From: Bacillota bacterium
GTDB lineage: Bacteria; Bacillota; UBA4882; UBA8346
Assembly: GCA_029776205.1 (NCBI GenBank)
Contig: JAKOTQ010000023.1
Span: forward strand, 1 to 64,000
DNA length: 64,000 nt
Direction of reading: 5' to 3'
The notes below the pieces were generated by a model. It did no database searches. It had not been told where the DNA came from and saw only the letters and a program-made list of their open reading frames with translations. Both the position numbers and the translations under genes were made by a program. Of the stretch, positions 2,875 through 62,512 are shown piece by piece. How positions within the stretch are numbered: position 1 is the first letter of the stretch; each line of letters begins with the position of its first letter.

Positions 2875-4467
2875 TTATCTTTGAATATGTTGCAGAATAT
2901 CCACTGGAGCATAGTCGTCGGTTAAAATTGGAACGTCCTGGTAATAAACGTCGTTTCGCACCCGAGGGTCATCGACCAAGTCCTGGGCATAGGCGACGAT
3001 GTTTTCAGTAACGATACCCTCTTCGGTTAGCTGCTTAGCTTGTTTTTTCCACCAGTCAGCCGACCGGTATTGGGAATCTTGGGTGGCGATGACGATGATA
3101 TTGCGTTGAAAGGACTCATCGCCTCCGGACCATCCGTTAATCGGGAAGAGATAAACCTGGGGAAAGACTTGGTTCAAGGTTCGGGTAAATGCCCGTAAAA
3201 AACGGCTTTGGGGGCCGGAGACAGCACCGATAACATTGGAAATAACCACTCCGTCGGGGCTGAGCGTCTTTTTCACCTGACTTAAAAATTCCAGTGTGGT
3301 CAGATGGTAAGGGATGGCGTCCGAGTTATAAGCATCGATGACGATCATGTCGTAAGGGCGGCTTTTGCCTGCGGCGATAGCTTTGGCTTTCTCCCGGATA
3401 AACAACCGGCCATCCTGGGCCAGCGTTTTTAACCGTGGTGAACGGGGCAATTGAAAATAGCGATAAGCCACCTGGATAACTTCCGGATCGATCTCCACCG
3501 CATCCAATTGTTTAATGGAAGGATAATCGTTAAGAAAACGGCTGGGCGCAGAACCTCCTCCCAGTCCGATAAAGAGAACGGATTGAGGATCCGGTTTGGG
3601 GATTAACCCCAGGTGAAGGTAAGAGGTATATTCAAAGACCATTTCTAACGGATTGTCCAGGTCGATACCGCTTTGATAGGAGTTATCAAAATGAAGATAA
3701 CGAATGGAACCCATTTGACGGACTGCCACATGATGGTACAATGTATCCCGTTCATAAAGGGTGGTTTCGCCAATATCTGTTGGACGGGGGAGTGAGCTCC
3801 ACCACCAGCTGCCAACGAGAGTGGCTGTTAGTATGAGGGTAATGCCGAGCAATATCAGGAGAGTCTTTCGAATTGCCGGGGAAACAGTCGGTTGTTTGGA
3901 TGAATATTGACTCCAGAAGGATAGGAAGGCCAATATAAAAAGAAGAGTACCCAGCATATGAAAGAGATGGCGGATGCCCATGGCCGGAATAAGAAAAAAT
4001 GAGGTGGCCAGTGTGCCGATGATACTTCCAGCACTGGATATGGCGGATAACCGTCCGGCGGTATTTCCTAAAGTCGTTAAATTATTGCCGGCAAGCTTAA
4101 TGCCATAGGGTGAAACCATCGCCAAAAGGACTCCGGGCAGGAAAAAGAAGCACCAAGCTGCCAGTAAGGAACCGGTACGCAAATCGTAACTGCTTAAATA
4201 TTGGTTGGCTGCATTGGACCATAGCGGCAGGAACCCTACAGCGCAACCGGCAAGAAGCAGAATGATTCCCAAAGAGCCGATATAAGGGTATCGGTCGGCA
4301 GTTCTGCCGCCAAGATAATATCCTAATGTTAAGGCGGCCATGACAATGGTGATCAATGCACCCCACACATAGATCGAATTCCCGAATGCCGGAGCCATCA
4401 CACGGCTGCCGGCCATCTCCATCGACATAAGTATTGCTCCGCTCAAGAAAACGATGAAATATAACAT
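2875..4467 (-). CDS. Membrane-domain/spermidine synthase fusion protein
   Basis: The 530-residue product has an N-terminal half (about 1-210) of roughly seven hydrophobic segments, beginning MLYFIVFLSGAILMSMEMAGSRVMAP, and a C-terminal spermidine-synthase-like domain with the nucleotide-binding loop VLFIGLGGGSAPS and the acidic motif DAVEIDPEVI. IVIDAYNSDAIPYHLTT is the gate-keeping Asp region. This is the widespread fused MFS/spermidine synthase type. The real substrate of these fusions is not well established, so polyamine synthesis is inferred from the domain alone. GGGAGG precedes the ATG. It is divergent from the metal-resistance pair. Confidence 0.85.
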   Translation of the reverse strand: MLYFIVFLSGAILMSMEMAGSRVMAPAFGNSIYVWGALITIVMAALTLGYYLGGRTADRYPYIGSLGIILLLAGCAVGFLPLWSNAANQYLSSYDLRTGSLLAAWCFFFLPGVLLAMVSPYGIKLAGNNLTTLGNTAGRLSAISSAGSIIGTLATSFFLIPAMGIRHLFHMLGTLLFILAFLSFWSQYSSKQPTVSPAIRKTLLILLGITLILTATLVGSWWWSSLPRPTDIGETTLYERDTLYHHVAVRQMGSIRYLHFDNSYQSGIDLDNPLEMVFEYTSYLHLGLIPKPDPQSVLFIGLGGGSAPSRFLNDYPSIKQLDAVEIDPEVIQVAYRYFQLPRSPRLKTLAQDGRLFIREKAKAIAAGKSRPYDMIVIDAYNSDAIPYHLTTLEFLSQVKKTLSPDGVVISNVIGAVSGPQSRFLRAFTRTLNQVFPQVYLFPINGWSGGDESFQRNIIVIATQDSQYRSADWWKKQAKQLTEEGIVTENIVAYAQDLVDDPRVRNDVYYQDVPILTDDYAPVDILQHIQR

Positions 4468-5046: not shown

Positions 5047-5103
5047 CTAATCTGTAACGGCTAACTGTGAACTGTGTACTATGTACTATGTACTGTGAAC
5101 CCG
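5047..5103. repeat. Heptamer repeat array R1 (ACTGTGA type)
   Basis: The gap between the ArsR gene and the ATPase reads ...actgtga actgtgt actatgt actatgt actgtga ac, five tandem seven-base units that vary at their last two positions. It is the first of a window-wide family of such arrays (R2-R8). It lies within an apparent two-gene operon and would be transcribed. Confidence 0.8.
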
Positions 5104-5139: not shown

Positions 5140-7233
5140 ATGATGCGTTACAAATTGGAAGGGTTGGATTGTGCCAATTGTGCCGCAAAAATTGAGAGGG
5201 AACTTCGGAAGATAAAAGGTTTAGAAGAAATTTCAGTGAATATGGCAACTCAGATTATTGATATACCCTCGGAAATGGTGGAGCAAATTACGGCGGTGAT
5301 CGATCGGGTTGACCCGGGGGTAACGTTAAAACCGGTTGATCGGTCTGAAATTTCAGAGGACGATGAAAAGGCGCCGCCGCTGGCTGCGTTGATTGCTGCA
5401 GGAGTTATTTTTGTAATCGGCCTGATTTATCATGACGTATTACACCAAACGTCCAATTCCTGGCTGGAATATGCACTTCTGCTTCCGGCCTATTTGGTGG
5501 TCGGATGGCCGGTTATTCATGGCGCCTATGATAACATTCGCCGGCGGCAATGGTTTGATGAGAACTTTTTGATGACGGTGGCTACTTTTGGGGCTATAGC
5601 GCTACATCAGTTGACTGAAGCCGTCGGGGTGATGTTGTTTTATGCGATAGGGCTTTACTTGGAGGATAAAGCGGTCAATCGTTCCCGGCGTTCGATCGCT
5701 GCGTTGTTGGATATTCAACCGGATGTTGCCCATTTGTTGGAAGATGGAGAAATGCGGCAGGTAAGACCGGAAGAGGTTGCTGTCGGAGATACGATCATCG
5801 TCAAACCGGGAGAGAAAGTGCCGCTGGACGGGGAGGTTTTAGACGGGGAGTCTTACGTAGACACATCGGCTTTGACCGGAGAATCCACGCCTCGGAAGAT
5901 TAAGTCCGGAGAACGGGTATTAGCCGGAATGATTAACGGGCAAGGCTTACTAACGATCAAAGTGACGAAGCCCTATGAACAGTCAGCCATTGCCCGGATC
6001 CTCCATTTGGTGGAGAAAGCCCAGGAACGTAAAGCGCCTACAGAGCAGTTTATTACGGCTTTTGCCAAATATTACTCGCCGCTGGTGGTTGGATTGGCCG
6101 TGTTGATTGCGGTTATTCCGCCGCTGGTTCTGCCCGAAGCTTCGTTTAAGGCTTGGGTGTATCGCGCGTTGGTTCTTTTGGTGATCTCATGTCCATGTGC
6201 TTTGATGGTTTCCATTCCATTGGGGTACTTTGGCGGTATCGGCGGGGCTTCGCGCCGAGGACTGTTGGTGAAAGGCGCTAATTACCTCGATGTGTTGGCC
6301 AAATTGCATACTGTGGTTTTTGACAAGACCGGTACGCTAACTCATGGGGTATTTCGTGTCGCCGAGGTTGTACCTGAAAGAGGTTGGACGGAAAAGGAAT
6401 TGCTTTCGGCGGTTGTCGCTGCGGAACGCTATTCAAACCATCCGATTGCGGATTCCATTCGTGAAGCTTATGGCGATGCATTCCCGGTGGAAACGGTTGA
6501 AGACTATCGGGAAATACCGGCCCATGGGATTACAGCCACCGTTAATGGAAAACGAGTATTGGCCGGAAATGCCCGTTTAATGCAGCAGGAACAGATCCCT
6601 TATTCCCAACCGGCCGGAGTCGGCACTATTGTCCATGTGGCGATTGACGGGCAGTATGCCGGATATCTGGCAATCGCGGACCAACTGAAGTCCGATGCGG
6701 TGAATGCCATTCACCGGCTGCGTTCTCTGGGGATTCGGCGGATATATATGCTAACCGGCGATGCAGAGGAGGTGGCGGCCCGGGTAGCGACCGAATTGGG
6801 TTTGGATGGATATTATGCCGGATTGCTGCCTGAGGAGAAAGTGGAACGCCTTGAAATGCTGCTCGCCGATCTTTCCCAGCCGGAAAAGCAGAAGCTGGCT
6901 TTTGTGGGTGACGGTGTCAACGATGCGCCAGTCATTGCCCGGGCGGACCTGGGGGTTGCAATGGGAGGTTTGGGCAGTGACGCGGCAATTGAAGCTGCGG
7001 ATCTGGTCCTGATGGAAGACCATCCGTCCAGGCTGGCGGCAGCTGTCTCCATTGCCCAGCGGACCCGAAGGATCGTTTGGCAAAATATCTATCTGGCGTT
7101 AGGGATTAAAATGATCTTTATTCTTCTGGGAACGGTTGGTGAAACCGGCATTTGGGAGGCTGTTTTTGCCGACGTTGGAGTCACTTTGATAGCCATCCTC
7201 AATGCCATGCGGGCGCAACGGGTGAATGTATAG
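5140..7233 (+). CDS. cadA: P1B-type Cd/Zn/Pb-exporting ATPase
   Basis: The 697-residue ATPase pumps divalent soft metal ions out of the cell. In order: an HMA metal-binding domain with GLDCANC (Cys11, Cys14), an actuator domain with DTSALTGEST, the transmembrane CPC motif (ISCPCALM, Cys351 and Cys353), phosphorylation site Asp395 in DKTGTLT, the HP motif (SNHPIA), and GDGVNDAPVIA. The C-terminal helix with ADVGVTLIAILNAMR fits the Zn/Cd/Pb group rather than copper pumps. It follows the ArsR sensor by about 100 bases that carry repeat R1, so it is probably co-expressed and metal-induced. Confidence 0.93.
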   Translation: MMRYKLEGLDCANCAAKIERELRKIKGLEEISVNMATQIIDIPSEMVEQITAVIDRVDPGVTLKPVDRSEISEDDEKAPPLAALIAAGVIFVIGLIYHDVLHQTSNSWLEYALLLPAYLVVGWPVIHGAYDNIRRRQWFDENFLMTVATFGAIALHQLTEAVGVMLFYAIGLYLEDKAVNRSRRSIAALLDIQPDVAHLLEDGEMRQVRPEEVAVGDTIIVKPGEKVPLDGEVLDGESYVDTSALTGESTPRKIKSGERVLAGMINGQGLLTIKVTKPYEQSAIARILHLVEKAQERKAPTEQFITAFAKYYSPLVVGLAVLIAVIPPLVLPEASFKAWVYRALVLLVISCPCALMVSIPLGYFGGIGGASRRGLLVKGANYLDVLAKLHTVVFDKTGTLTHGVFRVAEVVPERGWTEKELLSAVVAAERYSNHPIADSIREAYGDAFPVETVEDYREIPAHGITATVNGKRVLAGNARLMQQEQIPYSQPAGVGTIVHVAIDGQYAGYLAIADQLKSDAVNAIHRLRSLGIRRIYMLTGDAEEVAARVATELGLDGYYAGLLPEEKVERLEMLLADLSQPEKQKLAFVGDGVNDAPVIARADLGVAMGGLGSDAAIEAADLVLMEDHPSRLAAAVSIAQRTRRIVWQNIYLALGIKMIFILLGTVGETGIWEAVFADVGVTLIAILNAMRAQRVNV

Positions 7234-7566
7234 GAGACAGTAGACAGGAGTCAGGAGACAGTTTCGGAAGATTTAAGGTCACTGTATACGTTTACAGCGC
7301 ACAAGACACGGTTTAGACATGAGGCATGAGTGAGATTTCAGGGTTTTCGGAGTCAGCCGTCAGGAGACAGAAGACAGGAGAAAATGAAATCACGTGAGTA
7401 GACTTTTGTTCTCTTCTGAATTCTGTCTTTTTGCATTCTGTCTTCTAAATAGGATACTGTCAACTGACTAAAGCTGTACTCCGTATTTTCTCTTCTAACC
7501 TCTCAATTACTGACTCCCGTCTCCTAAATCTTAACTCCTAATTCCTAACTCCTGTCTCCTGACCTG
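7234..7566. repeat. Heptamer repeat region R2, converging arrays
   Basis: This 330-base gene-free stretch begins with ggagaca gtagaca ggagtca ggagaca gt, continues with a second copy near 7350 (gtcaggagacagaagacagg), and ends with the complement (actcctgtctcctgacc) at about 7500-7566. The two halves could pair as a long imperfect hairpin. The inner part also has the word acggtttagacatgaggca, whose complement recurs in R3. ORFs on the track here are not convincing. Confidence 0.8.
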
Positions 7567-16946: not shown

Positions 16947-16949
16947 CCA

Positions 16950-17060
16950 GTTCGCAGTTGACAGTGTACAGTGGACAGCTAATTAATCAAGGGTGCAACA
17001 GTGCACAGTACACCGTGCATAGTGACGAGCGAGAATACGGAATGGACAGAAGATAGTAGG
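16950..17060. repeat. Heptamer repeat array R3a
   Basis: Tandem seven-base units such as gcagttgacagtgtacagtggacagc and gtgcacagtacaccgtgcatagtgac follow the malic enzyme. They vary mainly at two positions per unit and belong to the same family as R1. Confidence 0.75.
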
Positions 17061-17275: not shown

Positions 17276-17327
17276 CTTGTGCCTCATGCCTAAACCGTGA
17301 ACCGTGCACCGTGAACTGTGAACCAAT
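17276..17327. repeat. Heptamer repeat array R3b
   Basis: The units accgtga accgtgc accgtga actgtga acc form four seven-base repeats just upstream of the EndoQ-like gene. The preceding gtgcctcatgcctaaaccgtg is the complement of a word in R2. Confidence 0.8.
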
Positions 17328-26372: not shown

Positions 26373-26388
26373 ATAATTCCTGAGTCCC

Positions 26389-26425
26389 ATAGTACACAGT
26401 TCACAGTGCACAGTTGATAGTACAT
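26389..26425. repeat. Heptamer repeat array R4
   Basis: The units gtacaca gttcaca gtgcaca gttgata gtaca are five seven-base repeats with variable bases two and three, in the gap between the GH13 gene and tRNA-His. The rest of the gap (26426-26700) shows no gene; it includes loosely related words (gacttctgtattctgcgtgtct). Confidence 0.75.
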
Positions 26426-26907: not shown

Positions 26908-27207
26908 ATGAGCAATCTGTTGAACTGGCACATTATTGTGTTGGCTTTTACCACTTTATTCTTCGCAGAAATGGGAGATAAAACCCAACTGGCAGTTATT
27001 ACTCTGGTCGCGGATTCGAAAGCTCCGCTATCGGTGTTTATCGGAGCCAGTGCTGCTTTGACCGTAGTGTCTTTAATTGGGGTAGTATTCGGGTGCGCGG
27101 TAACCAAGTTGGTACCAACCCACTTCCTGAAGTTCGGAGCAGGTATCCTTTTCGTCGGGATTGGCCTTTATACGCTATGGGAAACGTTCACCGGAATGGT
27201 GCGGTAG
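26908..27207 (+). CDS. GDT1/TMEM165 (UPF0016) half-size cation exporter
   Basis: The 99-residue protein has three hydrophobic segments and one copy of the family motif, FAEMGDKTQLAVITL (E-x-G-D-K-T). Full-length family members have two copies, so this one should work as a dimer. GDT1-family proteins export Mn2+ or Ca2+ and several bacterial members lie under the yybP-ykoY manganese riboswitch. None is visible directly upstream here, but one controls a Ca/Mn ATPase 3.5 kb away. GGAGG lies near 26898-26902 before the ATG. It is followed by repeat region R5. Confidence 0.88.
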   Translation: MSNLLNWHIIVLAFTTLFFAEMGDKTQLAVITLVADSKAPLSVFIGASAALTVVSLIGVVFGCAVTKLVPTHFLKFGAGILFVGIGLYTLWETFTGMVR

Positions 27208-27480
27208 TAGATAGTAGCTAGGAGACAGGAGATAGAAGACAGGAACTTTAAATAGTTGACAGTTGACAGTGGGACAATGGACAGTTTATAAGACGAAGTG
27301 TAAAGGAAAAACTGTTAAATTTATAAGACAGATAATACAAGAAGATAGAAGAAAAGAAACAGTCTCTTGTGCCTAAAGCCTAACGCGATACTGCGTATTG
27401 TGAACTGCGCACTGCGTATCAGAAAGAAAGAACTGTCAACTGTAAACTGTCCACTATCAACTAGAATTAGTCTCTCGCCT
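27206..27480. repeat. Heptamer repeat region R5, converging arrays
   Basis: The left part has ggagacaggagatagaagacagg and gttgacagttgacagtgggacaatggacag. The right part has the complement, actgtcaactgtaaactgtccactatcaact. The middle includes actgcgtattgtgaactgcgcactgcgta. The arrangement, two converging arrays around a unique core, is as in R2, R7 and R8. Confidence 0.8.
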
Positions 27481-27942: not shown

Positions 27943-28020
27943 TACTGTGAACTGTGTACCAGTTACCCGGGAACCAAAGCCAGACTTCTAAGCTTCTATT
28001 TCCTGACTTCTGACTCCTGA
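27943..28020. repeat. Heptamer repeat array R6
   Basis: It begins actgtgaactgtgtacc and ends with cttctatttcctgacttctgactcctga, combining both word types of the family in 80 bases directly upstream of the HAD gene. Confidence 0.7.
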
Positions 28021-28925: not shown

Positions 28926-28957
28926 GTATTACAATAAAACAATAATCGAAAAACGAT

Positions 28958-29267
28958 GATTAAGGAAAGTACCTTACGGAATGCCCTACAGAGAGAACGG
29001 GCCATCGGCTGGAAGCCTGTTTGGGAGATACGTTAGGGAAGTTCCCTTAGGAGTTGGCCGCTGAAATTCAGGTGACAGATGACAAACTGTTCACTGGAAA
29101 ATAGGTTGGTCCGGGAGCCCGCCGTTAATGGGATGGGGTATCGAGAAATATAAAAATTTCTCCGTACCTGAATGAGTGAGTCTTGTATAAGGCTAAAATG
29201 GGTGGTACCGCGGAATAGGCCCACGTTTCGTCCCATAAGAAGGGGAGAACGTGGGCTAATTTATTTT
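28958..29267 (+). promoter_or_regulatory. T-box leader controlling aroF
   Basis: The leader has the T-box sequence TGGGTGGTACCGCGG (about 29199-29213), stem I with AGAGAGA, and a terminator GCCCACGTT/AACGTGGGC (29219-29227, 29248-29256) followed by a T-rich run. The specifier loop is bounded by AGTA (28968-28971) and GAA (29038-29040). The codon after GAA reads UUC, which would make this a Phe-sensing leader. UAC at 29029-29031 is an alternative. Uncharged tRNA would stabilise the antiterminator and switch on DAHP synthase. Confidence 0.93.
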
Positions 29268-29281
29268 GTGGAGGAATGGCG

Positions 29282-30298
29282 ATGATTATTGTGACTAATC
29301 AGGACATTACCGAGGCACAATGGGAAAATCTTTGTAAAAATCTAGAAGAGTGGGGTTTTCAGATTCATGTCATCCAGGGAGTGGAAAAGCGAGTCCTTGG
29401 GGCCGTGGGCGACAAACGCCGGGTTGATTTTAGATATTTAGAGAGTATTCCTGGCGTGGAAAAGGTCATTCCCATTCTTAGCCCCTATAAACTGGCTGCC
29501 CGGGATGTTCGGCCGGAAGGTACTGTGGTTCAAGTCGGCGATCTAAAAATTGGCGGTGGTCATTTCGGAGTGATCGCCGGGCCGTGTGCTGTAGAAAGCG
29601 AATCCCAAATGATGGAAATTGCTGAGGGGCTGAAGGAGGCCGGTGCCAACGGCTTGCGAGGCGGCGCTTTCAAACCGAGAACTTCCCCATACAGTTTCCA
29701 GGGATTGGAGGAGACCGGACTAAAGTTATTAGCCCAAGCCCGTGCAAAAACCGGTTTGCCGGTGATCACCGAATTGATGAATTTGACTGAATTGGATTTG
29801 GTCGTAGAATATGCGGATATAATTCAGATTGGTGCCAGGAACATGCAGAATTTCGGTTTGCTCCGGGCTGTCGGCCGTCAATCCAAACCGGTGCTTTTAA
29901 AACGGGGGCTGTCGGCGACAGTGGAAGAATGGCTTATGGCAGCAGAGTACATTTTGGCCGAGGGCAACGAAAAGGTGATCCTTTGTGAGCGGGGGATCCG
30001 AACCTTTGAAACAGCGACCCGCAATACGTTGGATTTGAGCGCCGTTCCGTTAGTTAAGAGTTTATCTCATTTACCGGTTGTAGTGGATCCCAGTCACGGA
30101 ACAGGAAAACGGAAATTGGTGATTCCTATGGCTAAAGCAGCGGTGGCTGCCGGTGCCGATGGATTGCTGGTCGAGGTTCATACGGATCCGGTAAATGCCT
30201 GGAGTGACGGGGAGCAATCCTTGGATTTAAACGAGTTCCGCCAACTAATGAAGGAAGTTCAAAAGATCCTGGTAGTTGAGGGAAAGCAATTCGGATAA
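29282..30298 (+). CDS. aroF: 3-deoxy-7-phosphoheptulonate synthase (DAHP synthase)
   Basis: The 338-residue enzyme condenses phosphoenolpyruvate with erythrose 4-phosphate, the first step of aromatic amino acid synthesis. A ferredoxin-like N-terminal domain of about 70 residues ([16 protein letters not shown]...[15 protein letters not shown]) precedes the barrel, as in the Thermotoga-type enzymes. [47 protein letters not shown] and [11 protein letters not shown] are the conserved active-site strands. The ATG at 29282 follows GGAGG by seven bases. It is controlled by a T-box; the N-terminal domain may also give feedback inhibition. Confidence 0.96.
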
Positions 30299-36207: not shown

Positions 36208-36303
36208 CCGTTGATAGTTGACAGTGTACAGTAGACAGTTATTAATTCTGTTGGTTTGATGGATGCCTTTTCAAACTGTTAACTGTAAACTGTCAACTCA
36301 CTG
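36208..36303. repeat. Heptamer repeat element R7, near-perfect converging pair
   Basis: The left array GTTGACAGTGTACAGTAGACAGTT (36217-36240) and right array AACTGTTAACTGTAAACTGTCAAC (36275-36298) match as complements at 21 of 24 positions, and the three mismatches fall on the variable bases of the heptamers. A 34-base core separates them. It lies between two converging genes and could serve as a terminator, though no T-run follows. Confidence 0.85.
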
Positions 36304-37192: not shown

Positions 37193-37269
37193 GGGCGATT
37201 AGCTCAGTTGGTGAGAGCACCTGCCTTACAAGCAGGGGGCCGTAGGTTCGAGTCCTACATTGCCCACCA
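37193..37269 (+). tRNA. tRNA-Val (TAC)
   Basis: Acceptor GGGCGAT/ATTGCCC, anticodon arm CCTGC-CTTACAA-GCAGG, T arm GTAGG-TTCGAGT-CCTAC, encoded CCA. Confidence 0.97.
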
Positions 37270-37276
37270 TATTTAC

Positions 37277-37354
37277 GGAGCCGTGGTGTAGTCGGTCTAA
37301 CATGCCAGCCTGTCACGCTGGAGATCGCGGGTTCGAGTCCCGTCGGCTCCGCCA
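37277..37354 (+). tRNA. tRNA-Asp (GTC)
   Basis: Acceptor GGAGCCG/CGGCTCC with G73, anticodon arm CCAGC-CTGTCAC-GCTGG, encoded CCA. Seven bases after tRNA-Val. Confidence 0.97.
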
Positions 37355-37384
37355 TCAAAAACAAAAAGTAAAAATAAAAATAGC

Positions 37385-37413
37385 TTGACAAATAGTTGAA
37401 AACAGAATATAAT
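37385..37413 (+). promoter_or_regulatory. Internal promoter before tRNA-Phe
   Basis: TTGACA (37385-37390), 17 bases, TATAAT (37408-37413): perfect consensus within the cluster. Confidence 0.9.
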
Positions 37414-37429
37414 AGTAGTTGTCTCAAGC

Positions 37430-37505
<76 letters not shown>

Positions 37506-37525
37506 TAAAATACTTCACAAAAGAT

Positions 37526-37600
37526 GCGGAAGTAGCTCAGCGGTAGAGCATCGCCTTGCCAAGGCGAGGGTCGCGGGTTCAAATCCCGTTTTCCGCTCCA
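37526..37600 (+). tRNA. tRNA-Gly (GCC)
   Basis: Acceptor GCGGAAG with TTTCCGC, anticodon arm TCGCC-TTGCCAA-GGCGA, T arm GCGGG-TTCAAAT-CCCGT, encoded CCA. Confidence 0.96.
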
Positions 37601-37613
37601 AAAAGTTTACAAC

Positions 37614-37642
37614 GTATAGACAGGTATTTTACCTGTCTATAC
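37614..37642. terminator. Perfect 13-bp hairpin between tRNA-Gly and tRNA-Cys
   Basis: GTATAGACAGGTA-ttt-TACCTGTCTATAC. A T6 run follows only about 13 bases later, so it may be a terminator or an RNA-processing hairpin. Confidence 0.6.
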
Positions 37643-37681
37643 TTAACAGATAAGGTTTTTTAGCATAATATAAAATTATAC

Positions 37682-37756
<75 letters not shown>

Positions 37757-37774
37757 AAAAAGTTTATACGGTTT

Positions 37775-37862
37775 GCCGAAGTGGCGGAACTGGCAGACGC
37801 AAGGGACTTAAAATCCCTCGGTCCAAAAGACCGTACCGGTTCGATTCCGGTCTTCGGCACCA
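37775..37862 (+). tRNA. tRNA-Leu (TAA)
   Basis: A long tRNA with a variable arm (CGGTCCAAAAGACCG), acceptor GCCGAAG/CTTCGGC, anticodon arm AGGGA-CTTAAAA-TCCCT, encoded CCA. Pieces of its 3' end recur downstream. Confidence 0.97.
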
Positions 37863-62367: not shown

Positions 62368-62512
62368 GGTGATAGGAGACAGCAGACAGGAGTGAGGAGG
62401 ACAGTAGTTTCGAGTTTGAATGGCAGAAGATACTGAGTACTAGGCTTGAAACCCAATATTACAGGAACTTTCTCCTGTCTTCTGACTCCTGACTACTATC
62501 TCCTTGGTTACT
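62368..62512. repeat. Heptamer repeat element R8, converging arrays
   Basis: The left array reads ggagaca gcagaca ggagtga ggaggaca (62373-62405) and the right one ctcctgt cttctga ctcctga ctactat ctcctt (62472-62505), its approximate complement, around a 65-base core. It separates ftsW from murA. Confidence 0.8.

What the first reader, a model, noticed from the sequence alone, without database searches (positions are those of the whole stretch)
36208..36303. Window-wide family of degenerate tandem heptamers
At least eight intergenic gaps (R1 5047, R2 7234, R3 16950/17276, R4 26389, R5 27206, R6 27943, R7 36208, R8 62368) hold seven-base tandem units. One group reads GACAGTN/NACTGTC, another GACAGGA/TCCTGTC; both fit GWCAGNN. 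Heptameric STRR repeats are known from filamentous cyanobacteria; I know of no described counterpart in spore-forming Firmicutes. Units, not whole arrays, are conserved, which suggests local expansion by slippage rather than transposition of one sequence.
Basis: partly seen in the sequence, partly recalled or inferred. Interest (0 to 1): 0.75.

Follow-up and report, generated by a model that had tools for sequence, protein, structure and literature searches.

The report
Dispersed palindromic repeats built from heptamers
The seven-base repeats are real and occur genome-wide, but they are the arms of about 160 palindromic intergenic repeat elements that are copied around the genome as whole pieces, keep their sites within a genus and have their contents replaced, rather than arrays that grew independently by slippage.

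Summary
All eight gaps carry period-7 arrays. In 1.12 Mb of the same genome, lag 7 gives 81 segments against at most 7 at any other lag except its harmonic 14. Runs occur 155 times in 126 kb of gaps and once in 843 kb inside genes. The slippage interpretation does not hold. The arrays are arms of composite elements of about 100-500 bp, built from several heptamer classes. G-type arms precede C-type arms in 33/33 mixed elements here and 18/18 in the congener, so each element is one large inverted repeat. Whole composites, non-heptamer spacers included, are dispersed copies: 82% identity over 204 bp here, and at least 11 copies at 76-86% in the congener. The two species amplified different subfamilies, yet occupy the same intergenic sites (20 shared, 9 unshared, 104 empty; odds ratio about 100) with largely unrelated contents. 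Against another genus the site association is gone and empty sites appear, one only 17 bp long. Best reading: BIME/MITE-like palindromic repeats whose new copies land in, or convert, older copies. The mobilising enzyme is unknown; no RAYT-type or reverse-transcriptase gene was found. Heptamer intergenic repeats are known elsewhere; this is a new variant.

The parts
5055..5100 (-). R1: C-type arm only, alpha class (NNACTGTGNACTGTG...), between a 369-bp ORF and a heavy-metal P-type ATPase gene
7232..7381 (+). R2 left: G-type gamma arms 7232-7261 and 7352-7381 (AGGAGACAGTAGACAGGAGTCAG)
7521..7561 (-). R2 right: C-type gamma arm (CTCCTAACTCCTGTCTCCTG)
16948..16978 (+). R3 left: G-type arm, beta/alpha
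17280..17323 (-). R3 right: C-type arm, zeta then alpha (TGCCTCATGCCTAAACCGTGAACC...)
26388..26421 (+). R4: G-type alpha arm; the orthologous gap in the congener holds a different composite
27205..27463 (.). R5: composite; gamma G-arm 27205-27242, beta G-arm 27254-27290, zeta/alpha C-arms about 27355-27415, beta C-arm 27431-27463; 71% identical over about 215 bp to another locus (L050); RNA fold z = -3.1
27945..28020 (-). R6: C-type alpha and gamma/delta arms; the congener's orthologous gap (439 bp) carries a copy of that species' own subfamily instead
36210..36239 (+). R7 left: beta G-arm GTTGATAGTTGACAGTGTACAGTAGACAGT
36273..36298 (-). R7 right: beta C-arm AAACTGTTAACTGTAAACTGTCAACT; with the left arm a 23-bp stem with two mismatches, one unit apart (-30.6 kcal/mol, z = -4.0) filling the gap between two convergent genes
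62368..62399 (+). R8 left: gamma G-arm
62467..62504 (-). R8 right: gamma/delta C-arm; hairpin z = -3.1; the orthologous gap in the congener carries alpha arms instead

Best explanation
A genus-level family of dispersed palindromic intergenic repeats (BIME/MITE-like), each a mosaic of heptamer-structured modules arranged as one inverted repeat (G-type modules left, C-type modules right). Whole composites spread by copying. New copies mostly enter or overwrite older ones, so within the genus the sites stay the same while their contents are replaced by each species' active subfamily. Shown: intergenic dispersal, inverted polarity, extended homology between loci, species-specific subfamilies, shared sites with differing contents, empty sites in another genus. 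Inferred: that entry is into the loop of an existing element (nested insertion) or by ectopic conversion, which would keep the polarity; that the heptamer period dates from an older tandem expansion of the modules; that the hairpins sometimes stand in for intrinsic terminators.
For: Runs: 155 in 126 kb of gaps, 1 in 843 kb of genes. Classified runs 154 against 12 in reversed sequence. Polarity G-first in 33/33 groups here, 18/18 in G001 and 5/5 in sampled loci of other genomes. Extended homology between loci including spacers: 82%/204 bp, 74%/219 bp, 71%/215 bp. G000-only subfamily with about 6 extended copies; G001-only subfamily with at least 11 copies at 76-86%, eight of them aligned around a central GGAACGCTAACGCGTTCC hairpin. 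Shared occupancy 20 both, 9 one only, 104 none, p = 2e-15, while aligned cores of orthologous elements are barely more alike than non-orthologous ones (14.7 vs 12.7, p = 0.048). Empty sites in G009, e.g. a 17-bp gap against 184 bp here.
Against: Subfamily copies have ragged ends; no terminal motif or target-site duplication was found. No RAYT/Y1 transposase (PF01797) and no reverse transcriptase (PF00078) in the genome, so no mover is known. Arms within an element are not more complementary than arms taken from different elements (12.9 vs 12.0, p = 0.13), so many elements are not intact palindromes. Some longer perfect tandems in other families of the phylum do look slippage-made. The site-sharing sample is partly biased: many G001 contigs were fetched because they held array hits.
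Confidence: 0.75

Rival explanations
1. Independent local expansion by replication slippage of seven-base seeds in intergenic DNA.
For: Tandem degenerate units; perfect long tandems of similar words in other families of the phylum; 7-nt indel steps are reported between two Cyanothece strains (PMC4679880).
Against: The same few word classes recur at dozens of loci in a fixed inverted order. Extended homology runs through non-heptamer spacers. No 7-nt indel excess among paralogues. Empty sites exist.
Confidence: 0.1
2. The elements are kept as functional RNA or DNA hairpins, for example non-canonical bidirectional terminators or transcript-end insulators, and the arms are free to change as long as they pair.
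For: R7, R5 and R8 fold better than shuffles, z = -4.0, -3.1, -3.1. Gaps with elements carry classical intrinsic terminators less often: 13/65 vs 110/271, p = 0.002; convergent gaps 3/13 vs 16/27, p = 0.046. R7 is nearly the whole gap between two convergent genes. Occupancy is higher in convergent (17%) than in divergent gaps (6%).
Against: No covariation of arms within elements beyond the shared lexicon. No T-tract follows the arms of R7 (direct reading). One element lies where another genus has a 17-bp gap between adjacent genes. Mobile palindromes would give the same folding.
Confidence: 0.25
3. A protein-binding array: heptamers are sites for a direct-repeat-reading regulator or nucleoid protein, so selection keeps the words.
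For: Words recur genome-wide with a 7-bp spacing; heptameric direct repeats bind SARP-LAL regulators in Streptomyces (PMC5930380 title and abstract).
Against: Several unrelated word classes share the same loci and replace each other at orthologous sites. Fewer arrays in divergent, promoter-bearing gaps.
Confidence: 0.05
4. Templated synthesis by a telomerase-like reverse transcriptase that adds heptamers to DNA ends.
For: Short unit, few word classes, fixed strand polarity.
Against: No PF00078 reverse transcriptase in a 99.4% complete genome; internal chromosomal positions; inverted pairs.
Confidence: 0.01

Closest known systems
REP / BIME / REPIN elements (repetitive extragenic palindromes of Enterobacteria and Pseudomonas)
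   Same: Intergenic, dispersed, palindromic mosaics of short modules joined by recurrent linkers; tens to hundreds of copies per genome.
   Different: Arms are arrays of seven-base units of several classes; no consistent GTAG/CGTC tag was seen; no RAYT-type (PF01797) transposase in the genome.
STRR heptanucleotide repeats of filamentous cyanobacteria and GGGNATC-type heptamers of Nostoc and Xanthomonas (PMC4692102)
   Same: Seven-base units, intergenic, genus-restricted, units vary; inverted pairs of arrays were noted in Xanthomonas.
   Different: Those are described as tandem arrays of one unit; here several classes are joined in ordered composites with strict inverted polarity and extended homology between loci.
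TAACTGA heptamer repeats of Beggiatoaceae, Cyanobacteria and Bacteroidetes (PMC4679880)
   Same: Heptamer, intergenic, patchy distribution; the word resembles beta-class TAACTGT; mixed heptamers are reported in Microcystis.
   Different: There mostly direct repeats just upstream of start codons, with one indirect repeat set in the genome studied; here paired inverted arms filling intergenic gaps.
MITEs / fold-back elements
   Same: Small non-coding inverted-repeat elements amplified as species-specific subfamilies and inserted between genes.
   Different: No defined ends or target-site duplications found; contents are replaced at fixed sites.

Membership tests
STRR / heptameric SSR | Tandem seven-base units, significant above other periods, mainly intergenic | tested here: met
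STRR / heptameric SSR | Array is the repeating entity; loci share units but not longer sequence | tested here: not met
   100-290 bp homology between loci with spacers
REP/BIME/REPIN | Dispersed palindromic extragenic repeats assembled as mosaics of modules | tested here: met
REP/BIME/REPIN | RAYT (Y1/HuH, PF01797) transposase in the genome | tested here: not met
   own genome, no match while 5 of 14 control genomes matched
REP/BIME/REPIN | GTAG or CGTC tag at one end of a 20-40 bp palindrome | tested here: inconclusive
   GTAG occurs inside gamma units, but the one subfamily aligned has ragged ends and no consistent tag; no systematic test made
MITE | Terminal inverted repeats with fixed ends and target-site duplication | tested here: inconclusive
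   Overall inverted repeat yes; ends ragged in 8 aligned copies; TSD not seen at the empty sites inspected
MITE | Insertion polymorphism between relatives | tested here: met
   Occupied/empty sites between G000 and G009, but only at genus distance
Intrinsic terminator | GC-rich hairpin followed directly by a T-tract | tested here: not met
   No T-tract after the arms of R7; element gaps have fewer classical terminators
Known structured RNA (Rfam) | Match to a covariance model at gathering score | tested here: not met
   only tRNAs and a T-box in the window

The most novel reading that the evidence does not exclude
A self-targeting palindromic repeat system: new copies go preferentially into the loop of existing copies (or convert them), which preserves the G-first polarity without exception, keeps sites constant for the life of a genus while contents turn over, and does so without a RAYT transposase or a reverse transcriptase, by a mechanism not yet described.
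Probability: 0.3. Interest if true: 0.72.

Novelty: new variant of a known kind. Interest (0 to 1): 0.52.

Why it matters
Heptameric intergenic repeats have been reported in several phyla as unexplained tandem repeats. This genome shows that at least in one lineage the heptamers are sub-structure of larger palindromic elements that are copied whole, with a polarity rule and a site-versus-content pattern that can be tested in other heptamer-rich genomes. It gives a testable alternative to slippage, and a practical warning that these intergenic gaps are not comparable by ordinary alignment even between congeners.

Tried and rejected
Naming the organism by a genome-contig scan: only a distant Oceanobacillus hit; the host is an unnamed spore-forming Bacillota species. 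Plasmid searches with a composite and with synthetic arms: no useful match. Three cyanobacterial plasmid stretches: one has TAAGTAA-type heptamers, none the words seen here. The reversed-sequence control is invalid for lag-7 segments (period is kept on reversal) and was ignored; the tool's reversed-pattern control is inflated because GACAGTT arrays also contain GACANNNGACA. Apical-hairpin covariation test: discarded because the motif filter admitted coding sequence and selected for pairing. RAYT and reverse-transcriptase mechanisms rejected. Five apparent polarity exceptions: on inspection four are mislabelled epsilon or degraded alpha runs; the fifth, L019, is two GC elements in tandem.

Full report
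OBSERVATION. Best 35-nt lag-7 scores in those gaps are 20-29; other lags stay at 20 or below, apart from one 1.66-kb gap with 23 (lag 6) and 21 (lag 9). Beyond the window, the own genome (2.73 Mb, 124 contigs, 99.4% complete) holds 50 matches of ACTGTNNACTGTNNACTGT against 1 for the reversed pattern and 54 of RGGAGWCAGGAGWCAGGAG against 0. In 1.12 Mb fetched as stretches, segments at lag 7 number 81 at threshold 12, other lags 0-7, the harmonic lag 14 26. Runs are intergenic: 155 in 126 kb of gaps, 1 in 843 kb inside genes (genes called by a simple hexamer model). From the unselected part (window and contig C35) 24 gaps with runs in 404 kb, about 160 per genome.

ANATOMY. There are several unit classes, here written in G orientation: alpha GTNCACR, beta GTNKACA, gamma GKAGWYA, delta GAAKWCA, epsilon GGTNCTR, zeta GCAYGAG. 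Classified runs number 154 against 12 in reversed sequence. In every mixed group the G-type runs lie left of the C-type runs: 33/33 here (75 ordered pairs, none reversed), 18/18 in the congener G001, 5/5 in sampled loci of other genomes. Because this reads the same on both strands, each element is one large inverted repeat. A further class in G009 (GTTCCGC...GGAACGC) appears to have its own, opposite but constant, polarity (two loci). R7 is a stem of 10+6+7 bp separated by single mismatches one unit apart, -30.6 kcal/mol, z = -4.0; R8 and R5 have z of -3.1.

NOT INDEPENDENT SLIPPAGE. An all-against-all comparison of gaps shows homology of whole composites, spacers included, in both orientations: L044 8088 gap vs L051 14659 gap 82% over 204 bp; L015 2204 gap vs L051 74% over 219 bp; window 27208 gap vs L050 4052 gap 71% over 215 bp. 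Genome-wide, one composite (L044 8430-8640) has about six extended copies in G000, five short matches in G001 and none in eight other family members. A composite of G001 (C137 13400-13690) has at least eleven extended copies at 76-86% in G001, only shorter matches in G000, and at most one weak match elsewhere. Eight of the copies align around a central GGAACGCTAACGCGTTCC hairpin with epsilon arms, then alpha, then beta, with ragged ends. Indel lengths among paralogues show no excess at 7.

SITES VERSUS CONTENTS. Across 133 orthologous gaps of G000 and G001, elements are in both at 20, in neither at 104, in one only at 9 (odds ratio about 100, p = 2e-15); several of the 'one only' cases hold sub-threshold remnants. 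The contents differ in class and order. Per-base alignment score is 0.23 for element gaps, 0.51 for element-free gaps, 0.10 for random pairs; element cores alone score 14.7 for orthologues and 12.7 for non-orthologues, p = 0.048. Copies of the G001 subfamily sit at sites that hold other composites in G000, e.g. R6 (G001:C216) and L015 18262 (G001:C137). At L015 18262 and its orthologue the outer edges look shared (a zeta module on the left, epsilon-type units on the right) while the interior differs (by eye). Against G009, of another genus (64% mean protein identity), the association is gone (1 both, 6 and 4 single, 28 neither), and there are near-empty sites: a 184-bp element gap here is 17 bp in G009; a 55-bp terminator gap here is a 129-bp element gap there.

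MECHANISM. The simplest account is a family of dispersed palindromic elements that spread by copying. Entry of a new palindrome into the loop of an old one, or conversion between copies, would retain the polarity and the sites and change the contents; tandem insertion would produce GC-GC order, seen clearly only once (L019). This step is inferred. No mover was identified: PF01797 and PF00078 have no match in the genome. Arms within an element pair no better than arms from different elements, so there is no sign of selection for exact pairing. A role as non-canonical terminator is possible: element gaps carry classical terminators less often (13/65 vs 110/271, p = 0.002; convergent gaps p = 0.046), and R7 almost fills a gap between convergent genes. 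The terminator scan was simple and gap lengths were not matched.

COMPARISON WITH THE KNOWN. Heptamer intergenic repeats are on record as GGGNATC-type in Xanthomonas and Nostoc, with inverted pairs noted (PMC4692102), and as TAACTGA in Beggiatoaceae, Cyanobacteria and some Bacteroidetes, with 7-nt indel steps between two Cyanothece strains and mixed heptamers in Microcystis (PMC4679880). No account for Bacillota turned up in the held library, but related words form arrays in scattered other Bacillota (22 of 349 sampled genomes match ACAGNNN-type four-unit arrays; examples). In behaviour the elements are nearest to BIME/REPIN and MITE families (general knowledge; REP and REPIN papers listed, abstracts only), without the RAYT gene and without proven ends. 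Filed as a new variant of a known kind.

LIMITS.

Noticed in passing
window 28947-29238: T-box leader (104 bits) upstream of the ORF at 29276-30298; ordinary regulation.
   Followed up: no
window 37193-37862: Cluster of six tRNA genes (Val, Asp, Phe, Gly, Cys, Leu).
   Followed up: no
L038 1197-2190, L065 1125-1683, L016 18756-19448, L055 14604-15343, L053, L054, L061: Other dispersed intergenic repeat families without heptamer structure, about 50-340 bp at 77-92% identity, e.g. TGCAGGAGGGCGAACAGCGCCTCCTGTCG and TTGGAGGGGTCTGGGGACACAATTGTCCCC.
   Followed up: no
L056 about 4070-4105: A normal intrinsic terminator, GGGACAGTTCAACGAACTGTCC followed by a T-run, uses the beta word GACAGTT/AACTGTC at a site where genus g7 has an element; a possible seed for the beta class.
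   Followed up: partly
L180 12185-12393, L185 8550-8682, L187 2355-2656 (G009): Another heptamer class, GTTCCGC/GGAACGC, in a different genus of the family, with GTTCC-type arms first at the two loci that have both; the same GGAACGC/GCGTTCC word forms the central hairpin of the G001 subfamily.
   Followed up: partly
L107-L119 (G066, G186, G085): Perfect or near-perfect long tandems of TCAACTA/TCAACTGT-type heptamers, some beside tRNA genes, in unrelated families of the phylum; these look slippage-driven.
   Followed up: partly
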